Shown piece after piece: positions 42,405-53,057 of a DNA stretch of 64,000 bases. The stretch lies in assembly GCF_002563965.1 (NCBI RefSeq), contig NZ_PDJF01000001.1, forward strand, positions 620,001 through 684,000. The letters are read 5' to 3'. Origin of the DNA: Corynebacterium renale. Its GTDB lineage: Bacteria > Actinomycetota > Actinomycetes > Mycobacteriales > Mycobacteriaceae. Under the pieces are notes generated by a model. The model saw only the letters and a list, made by a program, of their open reading frames with translations, was not told the DNA's origin and ran no database searches. The position numbers were made by a program, and so were the translations under genes. Position 1 is the first letter of the stretch. Every line of letters begins with the position of its first letter.

Positions 42405-42746
42405 TCACCGCGAGTTGTATTTCTTGCGCTGTCGCCGGGCGTTACTCCATCCAGTTCGACGAGCCGAGCTACGTTTGTCCGGTCGCATCATCAGGGTAAG
42501 ACCATCAAAGTCGGTGGGTTTCCAGCTGTGGCGGTGTTCCCTGAACTCCATACCTTGTTCATTTGCCGCTGACTGTACAAGCAATGCCCGGCCATCTTTG
42601 CACAAGTCGACAGTGCGCTCCCACAATAGTTCGCGTACGCGCGCGGAAGGGTTACCGACGAATACGCCCGGGCTCAATTCCATGAGCCACTTGGTCAAAT
42701 CACCACGAAGTCCTGCAGGGCAAGCTGTTACCACGAGCACCATCAT
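42405..42746 (-). CDS. cas2e: CRISPR-associated endonuclease Cas2, type I-E
   Basis: A 113-residue Cas2e. It has the N-terminal strand MMVLVVTACPAGLRGDLTKWLMEL and the type I-E pattern ARVRELLWERTVDL, then a C-terminal extension (about residues 85-113) rich in Arg and Lys that in Cas2e contacts Cas1. It acts with Cas1 to integrate new spacers. The ATG overlaps the cas1 stop (ATGA). It is the last gene of the cas operon. Confidence 0.95.
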   Translation of the reverse strand: MMVLVVTACPAGLRGDLTKWLMELSPGVFVGNPSARVRELLWERTVDLCKDGRALLVQSAANEQGMEFREHRHSWKPTDFDGLTLMMRPDKRSSARRTGWSNARRQRKKYNSR

Positions 42747-43681
42747 GATTTCAGTTCTTCCTCGGCCCAGTTAATCCCGGAAGCAATAACTTCGAGTTCG
42801 CTCCACAGCATCAGTTCAGCATCTGAAATGAGATCGTCGTCAGGAATGTCCATGACATACTTCAGGTCAGACACCATGCGCTGCATGAGCCGCTTTTCGA
42901 CGACCGCGTCCCGGATCTTCCGCCGCACCTCAATGTGTGGTGTTCCTTGCGCTGCCGCCACGGCGTCAAATGCGGCAGGAATTGCAATTTCCGCTTTGTA
43001 GAGGTCAGCGATGTCATAGACAAAGGAACGGTCGGTTCCCGTGTGTACAACGCCTAACGCAGGAACAAAGCCGAGACCTGCGATTACTGCGTGTGCTATG
43101 CCATAAAGAGCAGCACTTGCAGCGGTCAGTGCTTGGTTTATTGGGGATCCTGAATCGAAGTCATTGGGGTCGTAGCTACGCCGGTCCCAAAAGACTCCGG
43201 TGCGCTCTGCTTCCTGCGCGTACACCTTTTTCATGCGTGCTCCCTCACGGCCCCGTAGTTGGGCCATCGTCAGGCCAGAAACGTCCTCACCGGGGAAACG
43301 TAACCCGTACATCTTGCGGGCACAATCTAATCGTTTCCGCTGGTTGGTCACAATTTCTGCCTGCGCAATTGCCATGCGGGAAGATTTTGCTGGCGGACGA
43401 CCGGAGGCGTAATACCGCACGCCACGCTCCCCCACCCATACGGTGGACACACCGGCGTCGCCAAGCAGAGCCATTGCAGCATAAGTAATCCTGGTGCCAG
43501 GTCCAAGAAGTAGTGCCGCGAGTTGTGTAGCCGGTACGTGTGCGGTTCCGCGTTTGTCTGTAATGGTTAAAGCGTTTCCGTCGCGGTTAACCACTGCTCG
43601 TTCTACGTATAGAAAAGAAATCCGATCACCCATCTGTGCTAATGCATGACGGGTAATCGGAACTTCTTGTGGTGTTGGCAT
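42743..43681 (-). CDS. cas1e: CRISPR integrase Cas1, type I-E
   Basis: A 312-residue Cas1e. The metal ligands are in place: the Glu of LRGREGARMKKVY, the His of GIAHAVIAGLGFVPALGVVHTG and the Asp of SFVYDIADLYK. The N-terminal beta domain (ALTITDKRGTAHVP) and basic surface are normal. With Cas2 it inserts spacers at the leader end of the array. The start is 1 bp after the cas6e stop. Confidence 0.96.
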   Translation of the reverse strand: MPTPQEVPITRHALAQMGDRISFLYVERAVVNRDGNALTITDKRGTAHVPATQLAALLLGPGTRITYAAMALLGDAGVSTVWVGERGVRYYASGRPPAKSSRMAIAQAEIVTNQRKRLDCARKMYGLRFPGEDVSGLTMAQLRGREGARMKKVYAQEAERTGVFWDRRSYDPNDFDSGSPINQALTAASAALYGIAHAVIAGLGFVPALGVVHTGTDRSFVYDIADLYKAEIAIPAAFDAVAAAQGTPHIEVRRKIRDAVVEKRLMQRMVSDLKYVMDIPDDDLISDAELMLWSELEVIASGINWAEEELKS

Positions 43682-43682
43682 C

Positions 43683-44387
43683 CTATTTCACCGGAGCCAA
43701 CGTCATTAGCCCACACCCATAGCCACGGGCGCGCCCAATTCCGTGTGTAAGCGCGTGGCGGAGTGCCTCGGGCTCTGTGACCTCTAACGTTCCTGCAAAG
43801 CGCGCCTTAACGATGCGCACCGGGTTACCTTTGGTCCCATCTTGGCGGTTCTTGTGGAATACATCGGTCCAGCGTTGCACAACTCCGGTTTGTTCTAACG
43901 CTGACCAGCGTTCCCGTTCCTGTTCAGAGGCTTCATCATCCGTACGTGGAGCAAGGGCGAAACCGTGGAGGTCTGCCTTCTTATATAACCAATCCAGCTG
44001 ATGACGCGGTGAAACATGTGCTTTAATCTTGCCGCGCTTCCCTTCGCGACGCTCGGAATAGGTCGGATTCGCTACTAATTCAAAACGCCACCGCTGGCCT
44101 TTTATCAGTCCGTCCAAGAAACGGGTGTAGTCAGCACTTTGCGCCGGCCGAGTTTCCCATCCGGCCTCAGCGACTATCCCATCTGCTGTAGGTTTCTCAG
44201 GTCCAACGATATAGAGCGTATGAGTGTGTTCATGCGAATCGACACGCCACAAGACGCGGGCCTCATCCTCCTGGATGTCCGGTGGAAATGTACTGCGCAC
44301 AGCAGCATGCAATGCGTTAGTTTCGGTGAGGTATTTACGTCCTGCTCGCCGTGCTGGATTCAGCAAGATTCGTGTAAGTGTTGTCAC
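43683..44387 (-). CDS. cas6e: crRNA endonuclease Cas6e (Cse3/CasE)
   Basis: A 234-residue Cas6e that cleaves the pre-crRNA at the 3' base of each repeat hairpin and stays bound to it. It has the glycine-rich loop GIGRARGYGCGLMTLAPV at the C-terminus, a basic face (RREGKRGKIKAHVSP), and the N-terminal catalytic-His helix region around LTETNALHAAVRSTF. The GTG start at 44387 overlaps the cas5e stop (GTGA). It should recognise the CCCCGC/GCGGGG stem of the repeats and the related pseudo-repeats in the leader region. Confidence 0.94.
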   Translation of the reverse strand: MTTLTRILLNPARRAGRKYLTETNALHAAVRSTFPPDIQEDEARVLWRVDSHEHTHTLYIVGPEKPTADGIVAEAGWETRPAQSADYTRFLDGLIKGQRWRFELVANPTYSERREGKRGKIKAHVSPRHQLDWLYKKADLHGFALAPRTDDEASEQERERWSALEQTGVVQRWTDVFHKNRQDGTKGNPVRIVKARFAGTLEVTEPEALRHALTHGIGRARGYGCGLMTLAPVK

Positions 44388-45106
44388 GCTTTCACCACCG
44401 TATCGAAGAAGATGTCGCTACCCAGGATCTGATCTTTACCGTCTGGATTTTCTAAGATCACGTCCTCGCCGCGAACGACAGTACGCCACCCGTATTTGCG
44501 ATGCTGCGGATCAAACGAAATCGGCACGTCTTGACGGGCGATCCCACCGGCTTCCTGTGGAGTACCGTCACGATAAACAGCCAATGATACTTCCGTAGGA
44601 GACTCACGCTTGTGCTGACGCGTTGCGTACCATTCCTTATGTTCACGGAGTGCTGTTTCCGCATCAGCGTCCACGATGCCAATCACCAGACCAGGATGAA
44701 CTGGGCAAGATCTGCGTCCCATAAACAAGGGGAATGCGGGCTTGCGTAAAGCGCTTGCGATCTCTTCCAAAAACTCTTTGTCATCTGCTTCAACAGCAGC
44801 CACGAAGGCAGCGTCCGAAAGGAAATACCTGGTCACCAATTGGGCTGGAGCTGAAGGCTTAGTAATCCATGGTTGTGCCGTCTGGTAGTCCCGCAATAAG
44901 CTACCGGATTGGTCGACTCGGATTGCCAAGCGTAGCTCAACTAAATCTTCGACGGGGTCAGTTCGGCGTCGCCCCTGCGCAGCAGCGATGAGGCCGATGA
45001 TGCCCGATTTCGTCGGCGTCGGGGCGGTAGCCCTCGTTTTGAAGCGTGACTCATCGCCCCAGGACTGCATTGGTCCTTTGAGGAGAAGAAGGAGTGAATG
45101 CTTCAT
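44384..45106 (-). CDS. cas5e: Cascade subunit Cas5e (CasD)
   Basis: A 240-residue Cas5e, the subunit that grips the 5' handle of crRNA. Family signatures are LLLKGPMQSWGDESRFKTRATAPTPTKSGIIGLIAAAQGRRR at the N-terminus and RKSPTEVS-like central strands (SPTEVSLAVYRDG). Its ATG shares a base with the cas7e stop (TAATG). Confidence 0.94.
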   Translation of the reverse strand: MKHSLLLLLKGPMQSWGDESRFKTRATAPTPTKSGIIGLIAAAQGRRRTDPVEDLVELRLAIRVDQSGSLLRDYQTAQPWITKPSAPAQLVTRYFLSDAAFVAAVEADDKEFLEEIASALRKPAFPLFMGRRSCPVHPGLVIGIVDADAETALREHKEWYATRQHKRESPTEVSLAVYRDGTPQEAGGIARQDVPISFDPQHRKYGWRTVVRGEDVILENPDGKDQILGSDIFFDTVVKA

Positions 45107-46242
45107 TACTCTGCACCTTGCTGGAGCTTCTCGACCTCAGCTACTAGCTTCTCACCGAGCTCAGGCAACGTAACTTCCTGCGCGATCTCTTTGAAAGAAT
45201 CAGCCAGGTTACCCAAACCGATTACATATGCCGCCTTGGGAACGAAGCCATACTTTTCCTGAACTTCCTTTGCTTCTGTGGCCAGGCGGTCGGCAGCTAC
45301 CGTACGACGGTCGCGATCATTGTCGGCTTCAACAGGATCTTCGAAAGCATTGACCAAGGAAACCGGACGGCTGTCGCGCACTGTGATGTACACCAGCTCT
45401 GGAAGTGTCTGGTTGGCAAAAGTGTTGATCTTGCCGGTGGGCATGGAGGCGACGAACGAATCGACAAAATACTTCAGTGTCTCATTTGCCGCTTGCTGCG
45501 ATCCCAAGTTCTTTTCTAGGCCTTCCACGTTGACCGTCGCATAGCGGTACAGCGTCGAGGACATCATCTGGACAGTGCCTAGCATGCCTGCGCCTGTTTC
45601 TTCGCCAGCTTCTGCAAGGTCATCGACAGCGGTGAAGAAATCAAATTCCGGAGCAGAAGCGTGCACACCAATTGCATGCGCGACTTGGACGGCGGCGTCA
45701 ACGTTGTACGCTGCGTCGTCAGCAACCATACGTCCAAACATTGCCATGTCAGCAGAATGGTCGGTGTCGAGAATCTCTTGAGCCTCAGACTTCTTGAGCT
45801 TTTCGCCCTCTTTCTCAATAAGCGTCGTGACTGCACGCTCAACCTGGGCGGGGCTCAAGAAAATGAGATAGGAGGTCTGCGGATATGGGTTGTGTTCAGT
45901 ATCTTCGGCATCTTTTTTGGATGGCTTCTCGACGACCGTTTTGATACCTGCAGCTTTGAAAAGTTGCTCTACACGCCCGATAGCATCTGCCTGCGCGACA
46001 TCTCCACGCTTTTCGAGCAGCCGTGCAATTTGCTCAGGTAGACGCTTGGAACGGCTTCCGACAAGCTCCGGCGAGAAGCGGTCGTTGAAGTCTTTGCGGA
46101 TTGCTCGCTTCCAGGACTGCGACGAAACACGTTGACGTGACACACCACCAAACACTGCTGATTTCGGAGCACCGGTGTCGTCACGATTGATCAGTGATGG
46201 AGGGAGGGTCTGAAGGGCGTGGATATCAATGACGAGGGACAT
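45106..46242 (-). CDS. cas7e: Cascade backbone subunit Cas7e (CasC)
   Basis: A 378-residue Cas7e, six copies of which coat the crRNA. It starts MSLVIDIHALQTLPPSLINRDDTGAPKSAVFGGVSRQRVSSQSWKRAIR, the usual N-terminus. The ATG at 46242 is chosen because AAGGAA lies 8 nt upstream, while the longer frame to 46362 would run into cse2. It has the conserved NAFEDP and GQAxE-like segments (VSLVNAFEDPVEADNDRDR). Confidence 0.95.
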   Translation of the reverse strand: MSLVIDIHALQTLPPSLINRDDTGAPKSAVFGGVSRQRVSSQSWKRAIRKDFNDRFSPELVGSRSKRLPEQIARLLEKRGDVAQADAIGRVEQLFKAAGIKTVVEKPSKKDAEDTEHNPYPQTSYLIFLSPAQVERAVTTLIEKEGEKLKKSEAQEILDTDHSADMAMFGRMVADDAAYNVDAAVQVAHAIGVHASAPEFDFFTAVDDLAEAGEETGAGMLGTVQMMSSTLYRYATVNVEGLEKNLGSQQAANETLKYFVDSFVASMPTGKINTFANQTLPELVYITVRDSRPVSLVNAFEDPVEADNDRDRRTVAADRLATEAKEVQEKYGFVPKAAYVIGLGNLADSFKEIAQEVTLPELGEKLVAEVEKLQQGAE

Positions 46243-46267
46243 GTTTAATTCCTTTCCAGAATTTTGG

Positions 46268-46903
46268 TTATTGAATTTCTTGGGCAGTGGCTTCTGCATC
46301 TCTTCGTGCAGATAGGCGCAAGGTTCCTGTAGCAAAATCGCGCCCCCAACGAAGCAAGACACGGTCCCGGTACTCCGGATTAGAGAGGCTGCGAAGATCG
46401 GCAGCTAATTGCCCGTAGTTGCACGCTATTTCATTGGCTCGAAGCAGCGATATTAACGAACGTAGGTGAACCAGGCGGGATTGCTCGTCACCTGCCACCT
46501 GCATTGCGTCGAAACGCATTTTGATGGAACGTGATTCAGTTACGCGGTAAAGCTGACCGCATGCGGTTGCAAAAGAAACGTCGTTAGAGTGCATAGGTTT
46601 CTTCGCACTTTGCATATGGATACCGAAAAGGCTCAGCGCATAGTACGCAGCTCGCTCGCTCGGGCTAGGCGCGTCACCTCGTCCAACTTCCCGTTCGCTG
46701 AGCGGTGGGTCCAGCGTCAGAAGGACTTCCTGGAGGGCAAGCGGATTAGTGTCGAGTGGCCGCGAAGCGAATTTGCGTAGCTCCGCCAGTGTTCCGCGGG
46801 CTAAGGCACCGTCGGCAGTGTTTTGAGAGTTTAGATACTGCCGCTGTAGCCGCGCTGCAGTTTTACCTACGCTCTGACGAAGTGTGGACTGTTCTTCACT
46901 CAT
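46268..46903 (-). CDS. cse2: Cascade small subunit Cse2 (CasB)
   Basis: A 211-residue all-helical small subunit, present as a dimer, which holds the displaced strand. Typical elements are ALARGTLAELRKFASRPLDTNPLALQEVLLTLDPP and PSERAAYYALSLFGIHMQS. The ATG at 46903 has GGAGGA 7 nt upstream and overlaps the 3' end of cse1 by 8 nt. Confidence 0.93.
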   Translation of the reverse strand: MSEEQSTLRQSVGKTAARLQRQYLNSQNTADGALARGTLAELRKFASRPLDTNPLALQEVLLTLDPPLSEREVGRGDAPSPSERAAYYALSLFGIHMQSAKKPMHSNDVSFATACGQLYRVTESRSIKMRFDAMQVAGDEQSRLVHLRSLISLLRANEIACNYGQLAADLRSLSNPEYRDRVLLRWGRDFATGTLRLSARRDAEATAQEIQ

Positions 46904-48596
46904 CAGACGTTCCTCCTTCTTCATTCTTTATTTTTTTTCGTTGGTTAGTGAGCAAAGGCAGGATGTCACGGAGCTTTCGTAACAACTGGTTGTGTAACGA
47001 TCCAGCGTTGACAATGCGCCCCGTTCCATCTTCACCACCATCTAGCCGTCCGATGAGGGCCTTCGGGCCAGCACCGCGAACGTGTTCGCGCGCCATTTCA
47101 AGCACTGCTCGACGGATCGTGCTTTCCCAACGCACGCATTCATCATCAATATTCTCCGGCGTTAAGCCCCGGAGCCAAGCAATGAACTTGGGCTCTAAAT
47201 CCGTGTAGAGCCGGTCAGCTGCGTCAACGTTGAACGCATAGTCGCCTCCGGCTGCCAGCGACAGCTGACCGACGAAAGAACCTAGTGCTGTGGCAGCATC
47301 ACGCACCGTTTGCGCTGCATTGCGCACCTTCTGCCGGCTTTCTTCAGAATGCTGCGCACTACGTAGCAGGTGCAATGGAATACCCAGTTGCGAACTGATA
47401 ATTGTCCCCACAGATGAACTCTGCGGCCCATATTCCATAGACACGATGGACACATCGAGTACCTCATCGACATATCCAACCAACGCTTCGGAACTAAGAT
47501 TTTCAAGCGTTTGTGGCCTTTTCGGTGGATGCAATTTTTCGCTAAACCCAGAATCCATTTGAGAGACGAGCAAGGCATCCAAAGAATTCCACATGGTTCG
47601 CTCCACAGAATATGTCTGTGGATAGTAAGCGAGGATGCCTTTTTTGGTCTGGTTCGGACTGAAGCGGTACGGAGTCATCACGTCACCAAACACGTTCTTA
47701 CCAGCGTCTGGAATACGGTCACCATTGCCGACTAATACTGCGACTACCTCGCCCCCTTCTGTGAAGAGGCGAATACGGCGTGACTGCCAGGTTGCCAGGT
47801 CAGAAGCGCCCTCAGGAGTCATCGCAGCATTAACATCAGCCTCATTGAGGACCCGCTGGGCACTTGAGTCTGGTTTACGTTCCCACACTGGCCGGTCATT
47901 CGCAGCATCAGGTCCGATTGCCTCCAGCGTCGTGTTCAGCAACAAGGTATCCAGCAGATTTTCGCCTTGGACAAAAGTACCGCCGGTCATACCAGTCCAC
48001 CCAGTACCGATGGGATACCCTTTCCCACCTTTCACACGGGGATCGCCTTCTACGCCCGGTTTAATCCCCGAATAGTCGTAGGCTTGTGTGTGAATTAACC
48101 AGCGTGCTGCCTCAGCGAAGGACAAAGATGTGCGTCCTGTCCCGGTACGCATCGTGAAATAATCATGTTCCGCTTCCGGGATAATCCTAGAAACTTCTAA
48201 TGTATTTCCGTTTTTTGTATGCAGGTCTGCGACCTGCATAAATGGGGCTTCATGATCCAGCAGATCAAAGCGATCACGGTATTTTTCCAGGTAGGAAAGT
48301 ACGGCTTCGTCTCTACCTTCAGCGAGCAAAGCTTTTCGCTTCTCAATGAACCAAGATGACCATTCAAATGGACCATAAGCTCGTGGATTAGTGAAAGATC
48401 CTTCTAGGCTTTGATGCTGGGCACGCCAGAAAATCGCCAGCAATGTTCGAAGAACGGCATAGTCCTGTGTCGGTGAATCACCAACAACTCTTAGGACCTT
48501 CTCCGATCCGTCAAAAATCGACTTGATTCCTAGGGCCTTAGTCCCCTGCGCGGTCTCGCAGATGATCCACGGCTCTTCAATCAGATTGAAAGACAT
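46896..48596 (-). CDS. cse1: Cascade large subunit Cse1 (CasA/Cas8e)
   Basis: A 566-residue large subunit that reads the PAM and recruits Cas3. It begins MSFNLIEEPWIICE, the family start, and has SFAEAARWLIHTQAYDYSGIKPGVEGDPRVKGGKGYPIGTGWTG, the characteristic middle region, and a C-terminal four-helix bundle. GGAG lies 10 nt upstream of the ATG at 48596. A TATAAA box at 48641-48636 on the minus strand could give the Cascade genes a promoter of their own, separate from cas3. Confidence 0.94.
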   Translation of the reverse strand: MSFNLIEEPWIICETAQGTKALGIKSIFDGSEKVLRVVGDSPTQDYAVLRTLLAIFWRAQHQSLEGSFTNPRAYGPFEWSSWFIEKRKALLAEGRDEAVLSYLEKYRDRFDLLDHEAPFMQVADLHTKNGNTLEVSRIIPEAEHDYFTMRTGTGRTSLSFAEAARWLIHTQAYDYSGIKPGVEGDPRVKGGKGYPIGTGWTGMTGGTFVQGENLLDTLLLNTTLEAIGPDAANDRPVWERKPDSSAQRVLNEADVNAAMTPEGASDLATWQSRRIRLFTEGGEVVAVLVGNGDRIPDAGKNVFGDVMTPYRFSPNQTKKGILAYYPQTYSVERTMWNSLDALLVSQMDSGFSEKLHPPKRPQTLENLSSEALVGYVDEVLDVSIVSMEYGPQSSSVGTIISSQLGIPLHLLRSAQHSEESRQKVRNAAQTVRDAATALGSFVGQLSLAAGGDYAFNVDAADRLYTDLEPKFIAWLRGLTPENIDDECVRWESTIRRAVLEMAREHVRGAGPKALIGRLDGGEDGTGRIVNAGSLHNQLLRKLRDILPLLTNQRKKIKNEEGGTSDE

Positions 48597-48657
48597 GCTG
48601 CTCACTCCTTTCTCTGTACTCACTTCTACTCAACTTTTATATGGTTTAACCCTAGCG

Positions 48658-51468
48658 TTAGGCATGGACATCAGCCTTCTTCCCATCGCTCAAAATTTCG
48701 AATCCGAGTTCGCTGCTGTAGGTGACCACGAACCGACCCACACGAGCTGTCTTGTCTTCGTCCAAAACGAGAGCGACTTGCCCCTTCAACAGGAAGTGTT
48801 TGCTCCAGGAGACGGGAGTGTTGCGTTCCAGTTCGCTAATTACCTGCTCGAAATCGTTCGCATAACGTGTCATTCGCGCAGGTAGCCGAAGCGTGCTGGA
48901 AGCAAGATGAAAAGCAGTGGGATAATCTACGTCATTTTCATCCAAGATTTCCATCTCTTTCCCTAGCGGCCGATACCCATATTCCGTTTGAATAATCGGT
49001 ATCACTTCCACCGTCGGCTCAGCGTCTCTGACCTGAGCCGCTCCGGCTTCTTCATCGGCAAGTGAAAGAGCAGCATTGACTTTGCTAAACAGCTGATTCA
49101 ACTCTTTAACAGTGAAAGGAGAAGGTGTCCGGAAACCTTTCGATCGCCTATGCGCTTCCGCCTCGCGCTGCGCACTTGTTATTTTGGATTGTTCCCACAG
49201 CTCCTGCAGTTCCTCGCCCATTTCAGGTTGGTCGTCGCTATACGTGGCTTGGACCAATCCGGCAATGTCATCGGGGCGATTGAATTCTTTGGGAAGATGA
49301 AGCAAGGTTGCAACGAGGATCTTCGGATCGTAAATAGCCATCGCACCGCCATCTATTTCGGGAGTGGGCGCCACTTGCGTAAGTCCTCGAATAAAGATTT
49401 TGGGTTTGCGGACCGGCTCTGGGCGATCATGCTCGGAACGGTTATGGCGGTGCAACCTACCTGCGCGTTGAATGATCAGATCCATAGGAGCCAAATCTGT
49501 AATCAGCACGTCGGCGTCGATATCCAGGCTTTGCTCCGCAACCTGTGTGGCCACAACTATTTTGGAATCGGGGCGACCATCACCCCTACTAGCCTTTGGC
49601 CCCAATTGTTCGCGCAGAAAATCTTCCTTCTGCGAACGCTCCCACGCCATGAAACCCGCATGGTGCAACTCAACCTTTTCGGGATACGCCGAAGATAGAG
49701 TTCGGTAGACATCTTGCGCGCGAGCTATGGTGTTGCAGATTATGAGCGCGCAGCCGCCGTCGATAAGCAGTTCATGAGTAAGGTTCTCTAGCTCATCCAA
49801 GGAATCCCCGATGACCTGGACAGAAGCTCGAAGATTTGTTGGGTTGGGAGCTGGCGTTGCGAAACTGTAACCATCCGCAGTGCCGACAGTAATCAGGGGA
49901 TACGAATCGGGCACGTTTTCCAACCTGTGACCCGTATACGCTTGTGCGAGTGCTGCCCGCCGATTCGCAGGCAACGTCGCGGACATCATAATCACGGTAG
50001 CGCCGTAGTATGCCAACCACTCAAGTGTTGTTTCTAAATAATCGGAAGTGTAGGCATCATAGGCGTGAACCTCGTCGAAAATGATTATCTTCCCAGCTAG
50101 AGCGGCATGGCGAAGCATGGAATAACGCTGCTCCAATGCGAGCATCAGCACCTGATCCACGGTGCCCACAACAATGTTGGATAGCAGCCCACGCCGCTTA
50201 CCATTCATCCACTGGCTAGCGACGGCCGCACCACCATGTTCCGGCACATCCTCCGCAATATTTTACAGCTTCAGCTTCTTGAACTGTGTCGAAAGCTGAT
50301 TCTTCGAGTGCGCCAGGTACATTGACGCAACCGTTTCTCGCGCTCCGGTGTTCTTCGCCCACTCAATCGTTCGCTCCAGGATGCCGTTAGCTGTAGACAT
50401 CGTCGGCGCTGCAAAATATATCCCCTGAGCAGAAGTATTCCGTCCGATGATATGTGCAGCCGCGAGCGCTGCCTCTGTCTTACCCACGCCCGTCTCTGCT
50501 TCAAGCATCACGAGCGCAGGACCCTTCAGTTGTCGAGCGCACTCGGCGATGGCCTGCTGCACGCTTTTAGCGTTAAACGAATCGGGCCACCCAAAAGAAT
50601 CACGATAGAACGTATCCATATCCTTATTAGGCATGGACGTAGTCCACGGGTTGGTTAAATCAGTAAGCGCCATCCCATCTTTCAGGCGGTCCTCCTGAGA
50701 TTGCTGAACTACCATCGGGAAAGCGTCTGCGTTCGAAGCTATCCAGTCAGCAATGACAATAATTCCAGTGAGAATTTGCGCTACGCCACCCCGGGCAAGG
50801 CGGACCTCTCCAAGCTTTTCCAGGACAGGGTAAACATCTAGAGTGTCAGCCATTGCGGTGATGATCTCATCCTGAACCGCCTTCCACGTTTCGGGATAAC
50901 CATCGAGAATGAGACGAATCGTACGCGCTTCGGAGTCTGCGGAGGCAATGCCGTGGTGAGCATCGACAGTCGAAGCGATACGCCGTGCTAGCAGGGCAGA
51001 AATCCCCTGACCCTTAAGCCATTTACTCACTAAAACACCTGACGATATGCCGTGTGGCATCTTAGGTAGCTTTAGCTCTAAATTAGGTTTTTCCAACGTC
51101 AAACCTGAATCGTAGACCGCATTTACGATATGCGGATAAGTCATCTCAATCTGTGATTGGAAAGTCATGGTTGCTTTCCCGCAATCATGTACGCCAGCCA
51201 GCCATAGGTAAAGAGTGCGCAGTTCTTCGACTTCAATCCCCAGCTCTTTAGCCAACTGACGTTTCACGTTTGCCGCTAACCACACGTCAAACACCGCAGC
51301 AGCAGCGCAAGCTGCATCAACTAGATGCTGCGTTAATGAAAGATACCCAGATTCATCGCCTGACTTGGCCCACAAAGAATTGGCCATGGGGCTGCGCCGA
51401 GAAACCCACCCATCGAACAGGCGTGCCACATCAAGGACACTTTTCGGAAGTTCATGTCCGACACTCAT
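48658..51468 (-). pseudogene. cas3: Cas3 helicase-nuclease, interrupted by an in-frame TAA
   Basis: Normally one Cas3 protein of about 936 residues that degrades DNA bound by Cascade. The first part (51468-50263, 401 residues) has the HD nuclease site (H94-D95 in GVHDCGKA, His48 in QHLVDAA) and helicase motif I (ETGVGKTEAA). Codon 402 is TAA (50265-50263). Reading on in the same frame, after five codons comes a GTG at 50247 and then IIIFDEVHAYD (motif II), MMSATLP (III), VVATQVAEQSLDIDADVLITD (V) and QRAGRLHRH (VI), ending at 48658. Everything else looks intact, so the stop is recent. It divides the first RecA domain, so two separate working pieces are unlikely. GGAGG lies only 2 nt before the GTG, which makes restart poor. 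A base-call error must be excluded. Confidence 0.9.
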
Positions 51469-51507
51469 GATTAGCTTTCTTTTAGATGTTTTCTTCGATG
51501 GTTTTGA

Positions 51508-51536
51508 ATCTATCCTGAAAAGTAAAACATGTCAAT
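51508..51536 (-). promoter_or_regulatory. cas3 promoter
   Basis: On the minus strand, TTGACA (51536-51531) is a perfect -35 box, followed after exactly 17 nt by TAGATT (51513-51508) as the -10. Transcription would begin near 51501, about 33 nt before the cas3 ATG. A tandem AATACCC repeat (51534-51547) borders the -35 box. Confidence 0.8.
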
Positions 51537-51544
51537 ACCCAATA

Positions 51545-51558
51545 CCCAACTTAACAAG
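51545..51558 (-). promoter_or_regulatory. Predicted target site of the leader-region crRNA-like guide
   Basis: The minus strand reads CTTGTTAAGTTGGG here, preceded by AA at 51560-51559 (PAM position). It is identical to the first 14 nt after the pseudo-repeat at 51615-51644. A full 32-33 nt protospacer would extend down to about 51527 and so cover the whole -35 box of the cas3 promoter. Confidence 0.7.
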
Positions 51559-51614
51559 TTTTATTGTGTAAATCTGACGCTCTTAGAGCATTACGGAGCA
51601 GGGCTATAGAATGT

Positions 51615-51693
51615 GGCTCATCCCGGCTTCTGCCGGGATGAGCCCTTGTTAAGTTGGGGCAATTATTTTTCCCTGCACCTGCAGGGACGGACG
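51615..51693 (+). ncRNA. crRNA-like guide RNA (CreR type) in the leader region
   Basis: Two repeat-like hairpins flank a short pseudo-spacer. The first (51615-51644) has stem CCCGGC/GCCGGG with loop TTCT and ends in ATGAGCC, exactly the 3' end of the true repeats. Its outer bases extend to a 13-bp perfect dyad. The second (about 51666-51693) has stem CCCTGC/GCAGGG with loop ACCT. Both keep the 6-4-6 geometry of the true repeat (CCCCGC, 4 nt, GCGGGG) through paired changes, so Cas6e processing is plausible. The 21-nt pseudo-spacer (51645-51665) starts with 14 nt matching the cas3 promoter region. TAGAAT at 51607-51612 is a possible -10, which would start the RNA just before the first stem. Crediting it as a Cascade-loaded repressor rests on analogy with known CreR RNAs. 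Confidence 0.65.
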
Positions 51694-51703
51694 TAAGCCC
51701 CTA

Positions 51704-51767
51704 TTTTCATTCGATCAAGTCGTATGTAAAATAGGCAATCGGCTGATAAAACTCCTGTTCAAGGAGT
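51704..51767 (+). promoter_or_regulatory. CRISPR leader: array promoter and boundary dyad
   Basis: TTTTCA (51704-51709) and TAAAAT (51727-51732) are separated by 17 nt and would start transcription near 51739, about 30 nt before the first repeat. ACTCCT (51751-51756) and AGGAGT (51762-51767) form a dyad with a 5-nt loop that directly abuts the first repeat. It could be the leader-anchoring site for Cas1-Cas2. The leader is AT-rich relative to its surroundings. Confidence 0.65.
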
Positions 51768-53057
51768 GTGTTCCCCGCATGCGCGGGGATGAGCCCGAAA
51801 TGGGCGGCAGAATATCGTTCAGGGCTTGGTGTTCCCCGCATGCGCGGGGATGAGCCTCCCACGGCACGGCCAGGTGCTCAGCATTGACAGTGTTCCCCGC
51901 ATGCGCGGGGATGAGCCGTGTAAATCGAGGAGTAGGAAAGAAACACCCGAGTGTTCCCCGCATGCGCGGGGATGAGCCCCAGGAAAAACGGCACCTTCAC
52001 CGACACCATCAGTGTTCCCCGCATGCGCGGGGATGAGCCCCCCGAAAGGACACACCATGAACCTCACATTCCGTGTTCCCCGCATGCGCGGGGATGAGCC
52101 CGCGGTCGCAATCGGCCCCAGCTCCGTCGCAAAGTGTTCCCCGCATGCGCGGGGATGAGCCCCGACCAGCAAGAACACACTCCTCCAACGACGCGTGTTC
52201 CCCGCATGCGCGGGGATGAGCCCCGTGGCCAAACGTAGCGTGGGAGATCACTGAGGTGTTCCCCGCATGCGCGGGGATGAGCCCTCTGCGCAGGTCAGGT
52301 AAATTTCAAATCATGAGTGTTCCCCGCATGCGCGGGGATGAGCCCCGCCCGGCGCGTACGTCAGCATCCGAACCATCGTGTTCCCCGCACACGCGGGGAT
52401 GAGCCCTCCACCCCACCGGCACCCCAGTCGAGGCACCAGTGTTCCCCGCACACGCGGGGATGAGCCGTTGGCGCCGCGTTTGCCGGGCACGATCTCGAAG
52501 TGTTCCCCGCACACGCGGGGATGAGCCGAAACTAAGCTCTTTTTCCGACCAACCACTGCTGTGTTCCCCGCACACGCGGGGATGAGCCCTTTACCGCGCG
52601 ATTAACTCCATCATTCCACCTGTGTTCCCCGCACACGCGGGGATGAGCCGTTTGCGGTTGGTCTGCGTGTGTCGTGGGAGATGGTGTTCCCCGCACACGC
52701 GGGGATGAGCCCCCTTTACGGCGTTGACAACGGCGTACTTTACTGTGTTCCCCGCACACGCGGGGATGAGCCCCGCGCACTGTCTGACATGAAGCTACGC
52801 GGGTGGTGTTCCCCGCACACGCGGGGATGAGCCGGTTAAAAGGGAACCCCCGGCTGTGTATGAAGCGTGTTCCCCGCACATGCGGGGATGAGCCGGGGCG
52901 GGTCACTGTCCTAGAGGTCACACACGGGTGTTCCCCGCACCGTTCAGCAACCGCCATACAAGGGCCTAGTGTTCCCCGCACATGCGGGGATGAGCCCAAC
53001 ATTCACGCTGGCCACGGGGTTGCTGACTGGCGTTCCCCGCGCATGCAGGGATAGATA
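51768..53057 (+). CRISPR. Type I-E CRISPR array, 22 repeats and 21 spacers
   Basis: Repeats of 28 nt recur every 61 bp (29-nt repeat if the PAM-derived base is counted, with 32-nt spacers). All share GTGTTCCCCGC, a 4-nt loop, GCGGGG and ATGAGCC. Repeats 1-10 (51768 to 52344) have loop ATGC, repeats 11-18 (52378 to 52833) have loop ACAC, and repeats 19 and 21 have ACAT. Repeat 20 (52928) is cut after 13 nt by a deletion of about 20 bp, and repeat 22 (53030-53057) is degenerate. One spacer (after repeat 15) is 1 nt longer. The degenerate end on the right and the promoter on the left give the transcription direction as plus, divergent from cas3. The first base after the repeat is C or G in 19 of the 20 intact units. 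Confidence 0.98.

What the first reader, a model, noticed from the sequence alone, without database searches (positions are those of the whole stretch)
51545..51693. A crRNA-like guide in the CRISPR leader appears aimed at the cas3 promoter
Seen directly: two hairpins at 51615-51644 and about 51666-51693 keep the stem(6)-loop(4)-stem(6) geometry of the genuine repeats through compensatory changes, and the first also keeps the exact 3' end ATGAGCC. The 14 nt directly after that boundary (51645-51658) are the perfect complement of 51545-51558, 77-90 bp upstream of cas3 and next to its -35 box TTGACA. The site has AA in the PAM position, and its first base is C, as in most genuine spacers. A 14-nt chance match between two stretches of about 300 nt is expected roughly 3 times in 10,000, before the extra demand that it begins at the repeat boundary beside a PAM. 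Known background: CreR-type RNAs in some type I systems guide Cascade with short seed matches to repress cas promoters. Inference: this locus encodes such an autorepressor, divergently placed between cas3 and the array, in a type I-E system of an actinobacterium.
Basis: partly seen in the sequence, partly recalled or inferred. Interest (0 to 1): 0.95.

Follow-up and report, generated by a model that had tools for sequence, protein, structure and literature searches.

The report
Mini-CRISPR guide that silences cas genes
Upstream of cas3 in a Corynebacterium genome, and in dozens of related species, lies a tiny repeat-guide-repeat element whose guide matches the DNA just in front of the CRISPR system's own cas3 gene, and it would likely steer the Cas complex there to turn down its own production.

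Summary
The window carries a type I-E operon and, between cas3 and the array, a two-hairpin mini-CRISPR whose guide matches 51545-51558 upstream of cas3 beside an AA PAM; that seed+PAM site is unique in the genome. I found such an element in 55 of 92 cas3 loci of the genus, window included. Guides differ widely between species, yet in the 49 loci measured guide and target match at positions 1-5 and 7-11 (44-49 of 49 each) but only in 14 and 13 of 49 at 6 and 12, where type I-E Cascade flips bases out (PMC5904413). Of 1974 guide swaps none reached 10/10; 35 of 49 true pairs do. In 15 close pairs of loci, 27 of 39 seed differences changed on both sides with pairing kept; at positions 6/12, 1 of 16. 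This is the comparative signature of a CreR-type autorepressor. New to me: the distance from guide start to second hairpin is canonical (37-38 nt) or 12 nt shorter (25-26, as in the window), nothing between, with about 6 switches on a Cas3 tree. Transcription, Cascade loading and repression remain inferred.

The parts
51615..51644 (+). Pseudo-repeat 1: hairpin with 6-4-6 core (51622-51637) and repeat-type 3' end ATGAGCC (51638-51644); stem extended to 13 bp over the handle
   Evidence: same kind of element in relatives
51645..51658 (+). Guide: position 0 (51645) and positions 1-13 (51646-51658), perfect complement of the target
   Evidence: unique seed+PAM site in genome
51646..51665 (+). Predicted 20-nt guide (32 in the array), followed by 5 nt before the second hairpin
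   Evidence: spacing 26 nt against canonical 38
51671..51686 (+). Pseudo-repeat 2 stem-loop CCCTGC-ACCT-GCAGGG, predicted Cas6e site at its 3' base
   Evidence: cleavage site inferred
51638..51686 (+). Predicted mature CreR RNA, 49 nt (61-nt crRNA minus 12)
   Evidence: inference from I-E processing geometry (recalled)
51605..51610 (+). Candidate -10 of CreR (TATAGA)
   Evidence: read; similar boxes by eye in some relatives; not tested
51545..51560 (-). Target site: seed 51545-51557, position 0 at 51558, PAM AA at 51559-51560
51507..51535 (-). Predicted cas3 promoter TTGACA-17-TAGATT; the -35 box is at protospacer positions 23-28
42405..51468 (-). Type I-E operon cas3-cas8e-cas11-cas7-cas5-cas6e-cas1-cas2
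   Evidence: NCBIfam
50263..50265 (-). In-frame TAA inside cas3 (codon 402); GTG at 50247 resumes the same frame
51768..53055 (+). CRISPR array of 28-nt repeats, 61-nt period

Best explanation
The element is a two-repeat mini-CRISPR upstream of cas3 whose guide matches the DNA just upstream of cas3 next to an AA PAM, and it likely encodes a CreR-type guide RNA that leads the host's own type I-E Cascade there to repress the cas operon. Shown: the anatomy, the guide-target match, its co-variation across the genus, the weak points at positions 6 and 12, and the target-side PAM. Inferred: it is transcribed from its own promoter, Cas6e cuts both hairpins, Cascade loads the roughly 49-nt RNA, binds with 10-15 base pairs, covers or abuts the cas3 promoter and blocks RNA polymerase. 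The pairing should be too short to call in Cas3, so the site would be bound and not cut. Immune crRNAs and anti-CRISPRs would compete for or disable Cascade and so lift repression.
For: 55 of 92 genus loci carry the element. Own-pair seed scores are 10/10 in 35, 9 in 11, 8 in 3 of 49; guide swaps give 0 of 1974 at 10, 1 at 9, 7 at 8. Matches per position in 49 loci: 49, 48, 48, 49, 48 at 1-5; 14 at 6; 49, 47, 46, 45, 44 at 7-11; 13 at 12; 41, 32, 28, 23 at 13-16; 12 at 17; positions 6 and 12 onward were not used in scoring. With no PAM asked for, the best site has AA in 49 of 49 and C at position 0 in 43 of 49, while guide position 0 varies. Close pairs: 27 of 39 seed differences changed on both sides and stayed paired; 1 of 16 at positions 6/12. 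Targets lie a median 80 nt (7-273) upstream of the cas3 start in 49 loci. In E. coli I-E, 5 bp of seed plus PAM suffice for Cascade binding and >18 bp are needed for interference (PMC5904413 abstract). CreRs autorepress I-B, I-E and V-A systems (PMC13131331 passage).
Against: No expression, binding or reporter data. Genus-wide, the best promoter-like site near the target has no fixed position and scores no better than shuffles (mean 8.04 against 7.87, sd 0.70), so promoter overlap rests on the window and a few relatives. Off-target Cascade binding events in E. coli were not seen to change transcription (PMC5904413 passages). 37 of 92 genus loci showed no such element, 15 of them among the 68 with the closest cas3. 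Free CreR is predicted to pair its handle with its guide, and in the window the 13-bp stem hides the handle before cutting. The window's cas3 has a stop codon. L030, L048 and L067 score only 8/10, and L067's guide lies 402 nt from the start.
Confidence: 0.88

Rival explanations
1. The 14-nt pair is an ordinary inverted repeat: a protein operator or an RNA stem/attenuator in the cas3 leader, and the hairpins are incidental.
For: The two arms are reverse complements 86 nt apart; the local RNA folds far better than shuffles (z -5.5).
Against: A stem or operator has no reason to lose pairing at exactly positions 6 and 12, to begin right after a CRISPR repeat end, or to keep AAC on one arm only. 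No terminator-like site was found in 51400-51800.
Confidence: 0.03
2. It is a fossil or accidental self-targeting spacer left from the array, without function.
For: Pseudo-repeats are degenerate and in 29 of 49 loci the guide segment is off-length.
Against: Paired guide/target changes in close relatives (27 of 39 seed differences) show continuing selection; length is held at two discrete values; in 35 of the 49 loci only one or two repeat ends, and no array, lie in the stretch read.
Confidence: 0.04
3. It is the antitoxin (CreA) of a CRISPR-guarding toxin-antitoxin pair, and the real target is a hidden toxin RNA or peptide rather than cas3.
For: CreA has the same anatomy (PMC9458426 passages); such toxins can be small RNAs. 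A relative outside the genus (L193) has a 45-aa hydrophobic ORF between guide and cas3.
Against: In the window only 146 nt separate pseudo-repeat 1 from the cas3 start, and the target faces cas3; targets sit a median 80 nt from the cas3 start in 49 loci. Small ORFs or RNAs in that gap were not searched for.
Confidence: 0.06

Closest known systems
CreR, cas-regulating RNA of modulatory mini-CRISPRs (types I-B, I-E, V-A; Liu et al. 2023, recalled, paper not held; passages in the reviews PMC12737573, PMC13131331, PMC12948488)
   Same: Mini-CRISPR at the cas locus; guide with limited complementarity to the cas promoter region; type I-E; repeats degenerate.
   Different: Here in Corynebacterium, with the weak points at 6 and 12 visible across species, and a guide segment that in 33 of 56 elements (29 of the 49 measured, plus four) is about 12 nt shorter than canonical. 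I could not check whether the original paper saw either.
CreA of CreTA (PMC9458426, passages)
   Same: Pseudo-repeats around a guide, partial match to a promoter, Cascade as repressor.
   Different: Target is cas3's upstream region; no toxin recognised.
tracr-L / Cas9 autorepression in type II-A (PMC11417352, search listing only; tracr-L recalled)
   Same: Effector with a short-match guide represses its own cas promoter.
   Different: Different effector and RNA; no homology.
Racr, phage-encoded solitary repeat RNAs (PMC10651486, start of abstract only)
   Same: Repeat-like hairpins outside arrays.
   Different: Racrs are encoded by phages and inhibit; this is chromosomal, in the cas locus, with a guide.

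Membership tests
CreR | Mini-CRISPR with repeat-like elements apart from the array | tested here: met
   two hairpins in 49 measured loci, the first ending ATGAGCC; an array (18 or more repeat ends) follows in 14 of the 49, not in the stretch read for the other 35
CreR | Limited complementarity to the cas promoter region, in repeat register, with PAM | tested here: met
   position upstream of cas3 is shown, promoter overlap only predicted
CreR | Cognate type I-B, I-E or V-A system present | tested here: met
   type I-E
CreR | RNA made and processed by Cas6 | not testable with these tools
   needs RNA
CreR | Cascade-dependent repression of cas genes, relieved by crRNA load or anti-CRISPRs | not testable with these tools
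   needs reporter assays
CreTA (CreA) | Guide represses a toxin gene whose loss of control harms the cell | tested here: inconclusive
   146 nt between element and cas3 start, target faces cas3; small ORFs and toxin RNAs in that gap were not searched for
Racr | Encoded by a phage or other mobile element as solitary repeat | tested here: not met
   lies inside the chromosomal cas locus with two hairpins and a guide
Type I-E CRISPR-Cas | cas3, cas8e, cas11, cas7, cas5, cas6e, cas1e, cas2e | tested here: met
   cas8e, cas11, cas7, cas5, cas6e, cas1e, cas2e above curated cut-offs; cas3 in two pieces: HD and helicase domain models above cut-off, full-length model below

The most novel reading that the evidence does not exclude
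These bacteria run two sizes of Cascade at once: a six-Cas7 complex for killing and a natural four-Cas7 'repressor Cascade' built on a guide shortened by exactly two Cas7 steps. Evolution has switched between the two lengths about six times, always by about 12 nt and never by 6, which would reveal the in vivo assembly unit of type I-E Cascade (two Cas7 plus one Cas11).
Probability: 0.45. Interest if true: 0.85.

Novelty: new variant of a known kind. Interest (0 to 1): 0.7.

Why it matters
It gives strong genome-only evidence that guide and target have been kept paired by selection while both changed, with the six-base rhythm of Cascade written in natural sequence. It makes CreR autorepression directly testable in many Corynebacterium species. 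It also offers naturally recurring short-guide elements; apart from occasional off-length spacers in arrays, I know short guides only from engineered crRNAs. They are a way to learn how guide length sets Cascade composition and whether a repressor-only complex can be specified by length.

Tried and rejected
Inverted-repeat operator, attenuator, fossil spacer and toxin-guard readings were considered (see rivals). Rfam: four matches, all far below gathering scores (best BSnc120, 27.1 bits against 114), taken as chance from the palindrome. Array against phages: 22 records, 20 listed, none looking like a clean spacer match, not followed further, so the PAM was not checked from phages. Genus-wide promoter position: no better than shuffles. 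A stricter hairpin scan recovered only 25 of 49 known elements, found nothing in the 45 others and 0 of 94 reversed controls; dropped as a census. Outside the genus: of 51 named cas3 loci six were convincing, all Corynebacterium genomes already seen; that scan missed L101, L107, L109 and L111, which are the same contigs as L048, L060, L064 and L071. Order search: 58 of 397 genomes with cas3, 30 loci fetched, 29 scanned (26 outside the genus); 4 of 29 gave a hit against 1 of 29 reversed, and I accept one (L193). That scan also missed L173 and L174, the same genomes as the positives L006 and L044, so absence elsewhere is not shown.

Errors of mine: one search used a mistyped pattern, corrected. 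L045 was cut wrongly (contig end); redone (positive, 9/10, 26 nt), and the tree was rebuilt with L045 and L048 recut. The pairs were picked by me from the tree; some are near relatives, not strict sisters. L076 was missed by my stem filter and added by eye. Left out: L020-L024 (weak or second matches) and G238 (match lacks the N-terminus). L014 (8/10) is not counted. My first swap control (1466 swaps) used loose clusters and had two 10/10 and seven 9/10 swaps; one search is the clean one. One search translated a wrong frame and was not used.

Full report
WHAT IS THERE. The window (in a 2.35 Mb single-contig genome) holds a type I-E operon on the minus strand, cas3 to cas2, 51468 to 42405. Upstream of cas3 and pointing the other way is an array of 28-nt repeats with a 61-nt period from 51768. 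Between them are the two hairpins of the finding. The first ends in the repeat's ATGAGCC (51638-51644); the 14 nt that follow are the exact complement of 51545-51558, 77-90 bp upstream of the cas3 start, with AA at the PAM. One correction: in the window the first stem is 13 bp, not 6, because the 5' flank pairs with the handle; a like extension is seen in L034 (7 more pairs) and L031 (6), while 44 of 49 loci have two or fewer. The genus is Corynebacterium: contig lengths of G246, G147, G026, G144 and G169 equal those of C. tuberculostearicum SK141, C. macginleyi, C. pilosum, C. lowii and C. phoceense records.

THE TEST THAT DECIDES. I searched 242 genomes of the genus with the N-terminal part of Cas3; 93 had a match at E<=1e-20. 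For 92 of them (G238 left out), plus two loci from outside the genus, I took the cas3-upstream region (94 in all). An anchored search (hairpin, then ATGAGCC) found a candidate in 48 of 94. L076 was added by eye. Five more came from dropping the upstream-stem rule and allowing handle variants (L060, L062, L064, L071, L094): 6 hits in 45 loci, against a mean of 0.27 and at most 3 with 291 shuffled handles; the sixth, L014, is left out as weak. L045 came after correcting a cut. That makes 55 of the 92 genus loci, window included; I found none in the two outside loci. By my tally against these are 53 of the 68 loci with a Cas3 bit score of 240 or more, and 2 of the 24 below.

For each candidate I asked how well the guide (positions 1-5 and 7-11) matches the opposite strand of the region between it and cas3. 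In the 49 loci measured, 35 score 10/10, 11 score 9, 3 score 8. Giving each guide to the region of a species with an unlike guide yields 0 of 1974 at 10, 1 at 9, 7 at 8; reading the own region in the same direction yields at most 7 (48 loci). The guides are far from uniform: all four bases occur in guides at every paired position from 2 on.

THE SIX-BASE RHYTHM. Matches by position in 49 loci: 49, 48, 48, 49, 48 (1-5); 14 (6); 49, 47, 46, 45, 44 (7-11); 13 (12); 41, 32, 28, 23 (13-16); 12 (17). Random re-dealing of targets gives 16.9 at position 6, 7.7 at 12 (largest of 2000: 17) and 19.1 at 13 (largest 29); so position 6 is at chance and 12 above the mean but within the range. Positions 6, 12 and onward were not used in scoring. 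Every sixth base of a Cascade-bound guide is flipped out and does not pair (PMC5904413 passage). No stem or protein operator predicts this. Without asking for a PAM, the best site is unique and has AA at -2,-1 in 49 of 49, and C at position 0 in 43 of 49, while position 0 of the guide is C 20, G 14, T 8, A 7: the PAM is kept on the target only. Array spacers in these regions begin with C in 208 of 269, in line with an AAC PAM.

Close relatives show the process. In 15 pairs that I chose from the first tree there are 39 differences at paired positions (1-5, 7-11, 13): 27 changed in guide and target together and stayed paired in both. At positions 6 and 12 there are 16 differences, of which 1 did so. 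For example L025 and L027 differ at 5, 7 and 8 on both sides with pairing kept, and at 6 without pairing.

HOW IT WOULD WORK. E. coli Cascade binds with 5 bp of seed plus PAM, whereas interference and priming need more than 18 bp (PMC5904413 abstract). Pairing here fades near position 16. So Cascade should bind without calling Cas3. In the window the -35-like box is at protospacer positions 23-28, just beyond a 20-nt guide. Targets lie a median 80 nt (7 to 273) upstream of the cas3 start in 49 loci. I could not show a conserved promoter position across the genus. In the window's genome the seed with PAM occurs nowhere else, so the guide looks dedicated. Reviews describe CreRs as autorepressors of type I-B, I-E and V-A cas genes that sense crRNA load and anti-CRISPRs (passages: PMC12737573; PMC13131331; PMC12948488). 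I file it as CreR by anatomy; RNA and repression are untested.

LENGTH IN STEPS OF TWELVE. From ATGAGCC to the CCCCGC arm of the second hairpin the distance is 25 (4 loci), 26 (25), 37 (10) or 38 (10), nothing between, in 49 loci searched over 15 to 44; in arrays it is 38 in 240 of 251, else 39 or 40. Seven further elements fall on or within about one base of these values (four short, three long). The window has 26, so its CreR should be 49 nt instead of 61. On a Cas3 tree of 55 rows (31 short, 21 long, 3 without) the two lengths need 6 switches; for the long class 5 of its 6 changes are forced by well-supported branches, though a few rows sit on long branches. Type I-F1 Cascade follows L = 6N - 4 (a 20-nt spacer would hold four Cas7), and I-E Cascades accept altered lengths, with three to six Cas7 reported (PMC7296934 passages; PMC6828817 passages). 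Against a repressor-only role stands a cited title saying that shortened-spacer E. coli Cascades can still interfere and prime (Kuznedelov 2016, title only). The plain reading is that the guide beyond about position 17 is free to shrink, but only by whole assembly units; the bold one is a dedicated smaller repressor Cascade. That a 6-nt step is not seen hints at a unit of two Cas7 and one Cas11; this is my inference.

REACH. Outside the genus one convincing case appeared: L193, another family of the order, 26-nt spacing, 9/10 to two sites, one of them beside its own first hairpin. The scans used outside the genus are insensitive (they missed known positives), so the true spread is unknown.

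NOVELTY. Searches for Corynebacterium with CreR and related terms showed nothing on point in their listings from the open library; the original CreR paper is not held, so I cannot say whether it lists these species or short guides. CreR in type I-E is known; the genus-wide record and the 12-nt short class are what I take to be new.

Noticed in passing
window 50263-50265 (-): cas3 has an in-frame TAA at codon 402, after the HD domain and the start of the helicase; a GTG with GGAG ahead of it resumes the same frame at 50247. Most relatives' cas3 frames run over 900 codons, but G064, G130, G014, G113 and G176 are also short (424-692). Interference may be off in this strain while Cascade repression could persist.
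   Followed up: partly
window 52925-52966 and 53027-53055: Far end of the array is worn: a repeat cut short inside a 102-nt unit, one 62-nt unit further in, and a degenerate last repeat.
   Followed up: no
window 51768-53000: Repeats come in blocks by loop sequence: CATGCG next to the leader (10), then CACACG (8), then CACATG (2), as if repeat variants spread by leader-end copying.
   Followed up: no
L193 1206-1343 (-) and nearby: Outside the genus, a CreR-like element has two target sites, one beside its own first hairpin (possible self-repression), and a 45-aa hydrophobic ORF lies between it and cas3; could be a guarded toxin or chance.
   Followed up: partly
L031, L034 and window 51615-51644: The first pseudo-repeat's stem is extended over the handle (6, 7 and 7 extra pairs), which would hide the handle until processing.
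   Followed up: partly
L094 (upstream region, handle ATGATCC): An element with a changed repeat end and a 10/10 seed match occurs beside a distant cas3 (30% identity), so the device may exist in a second I-E lineage of the genus.
   Followed up: no
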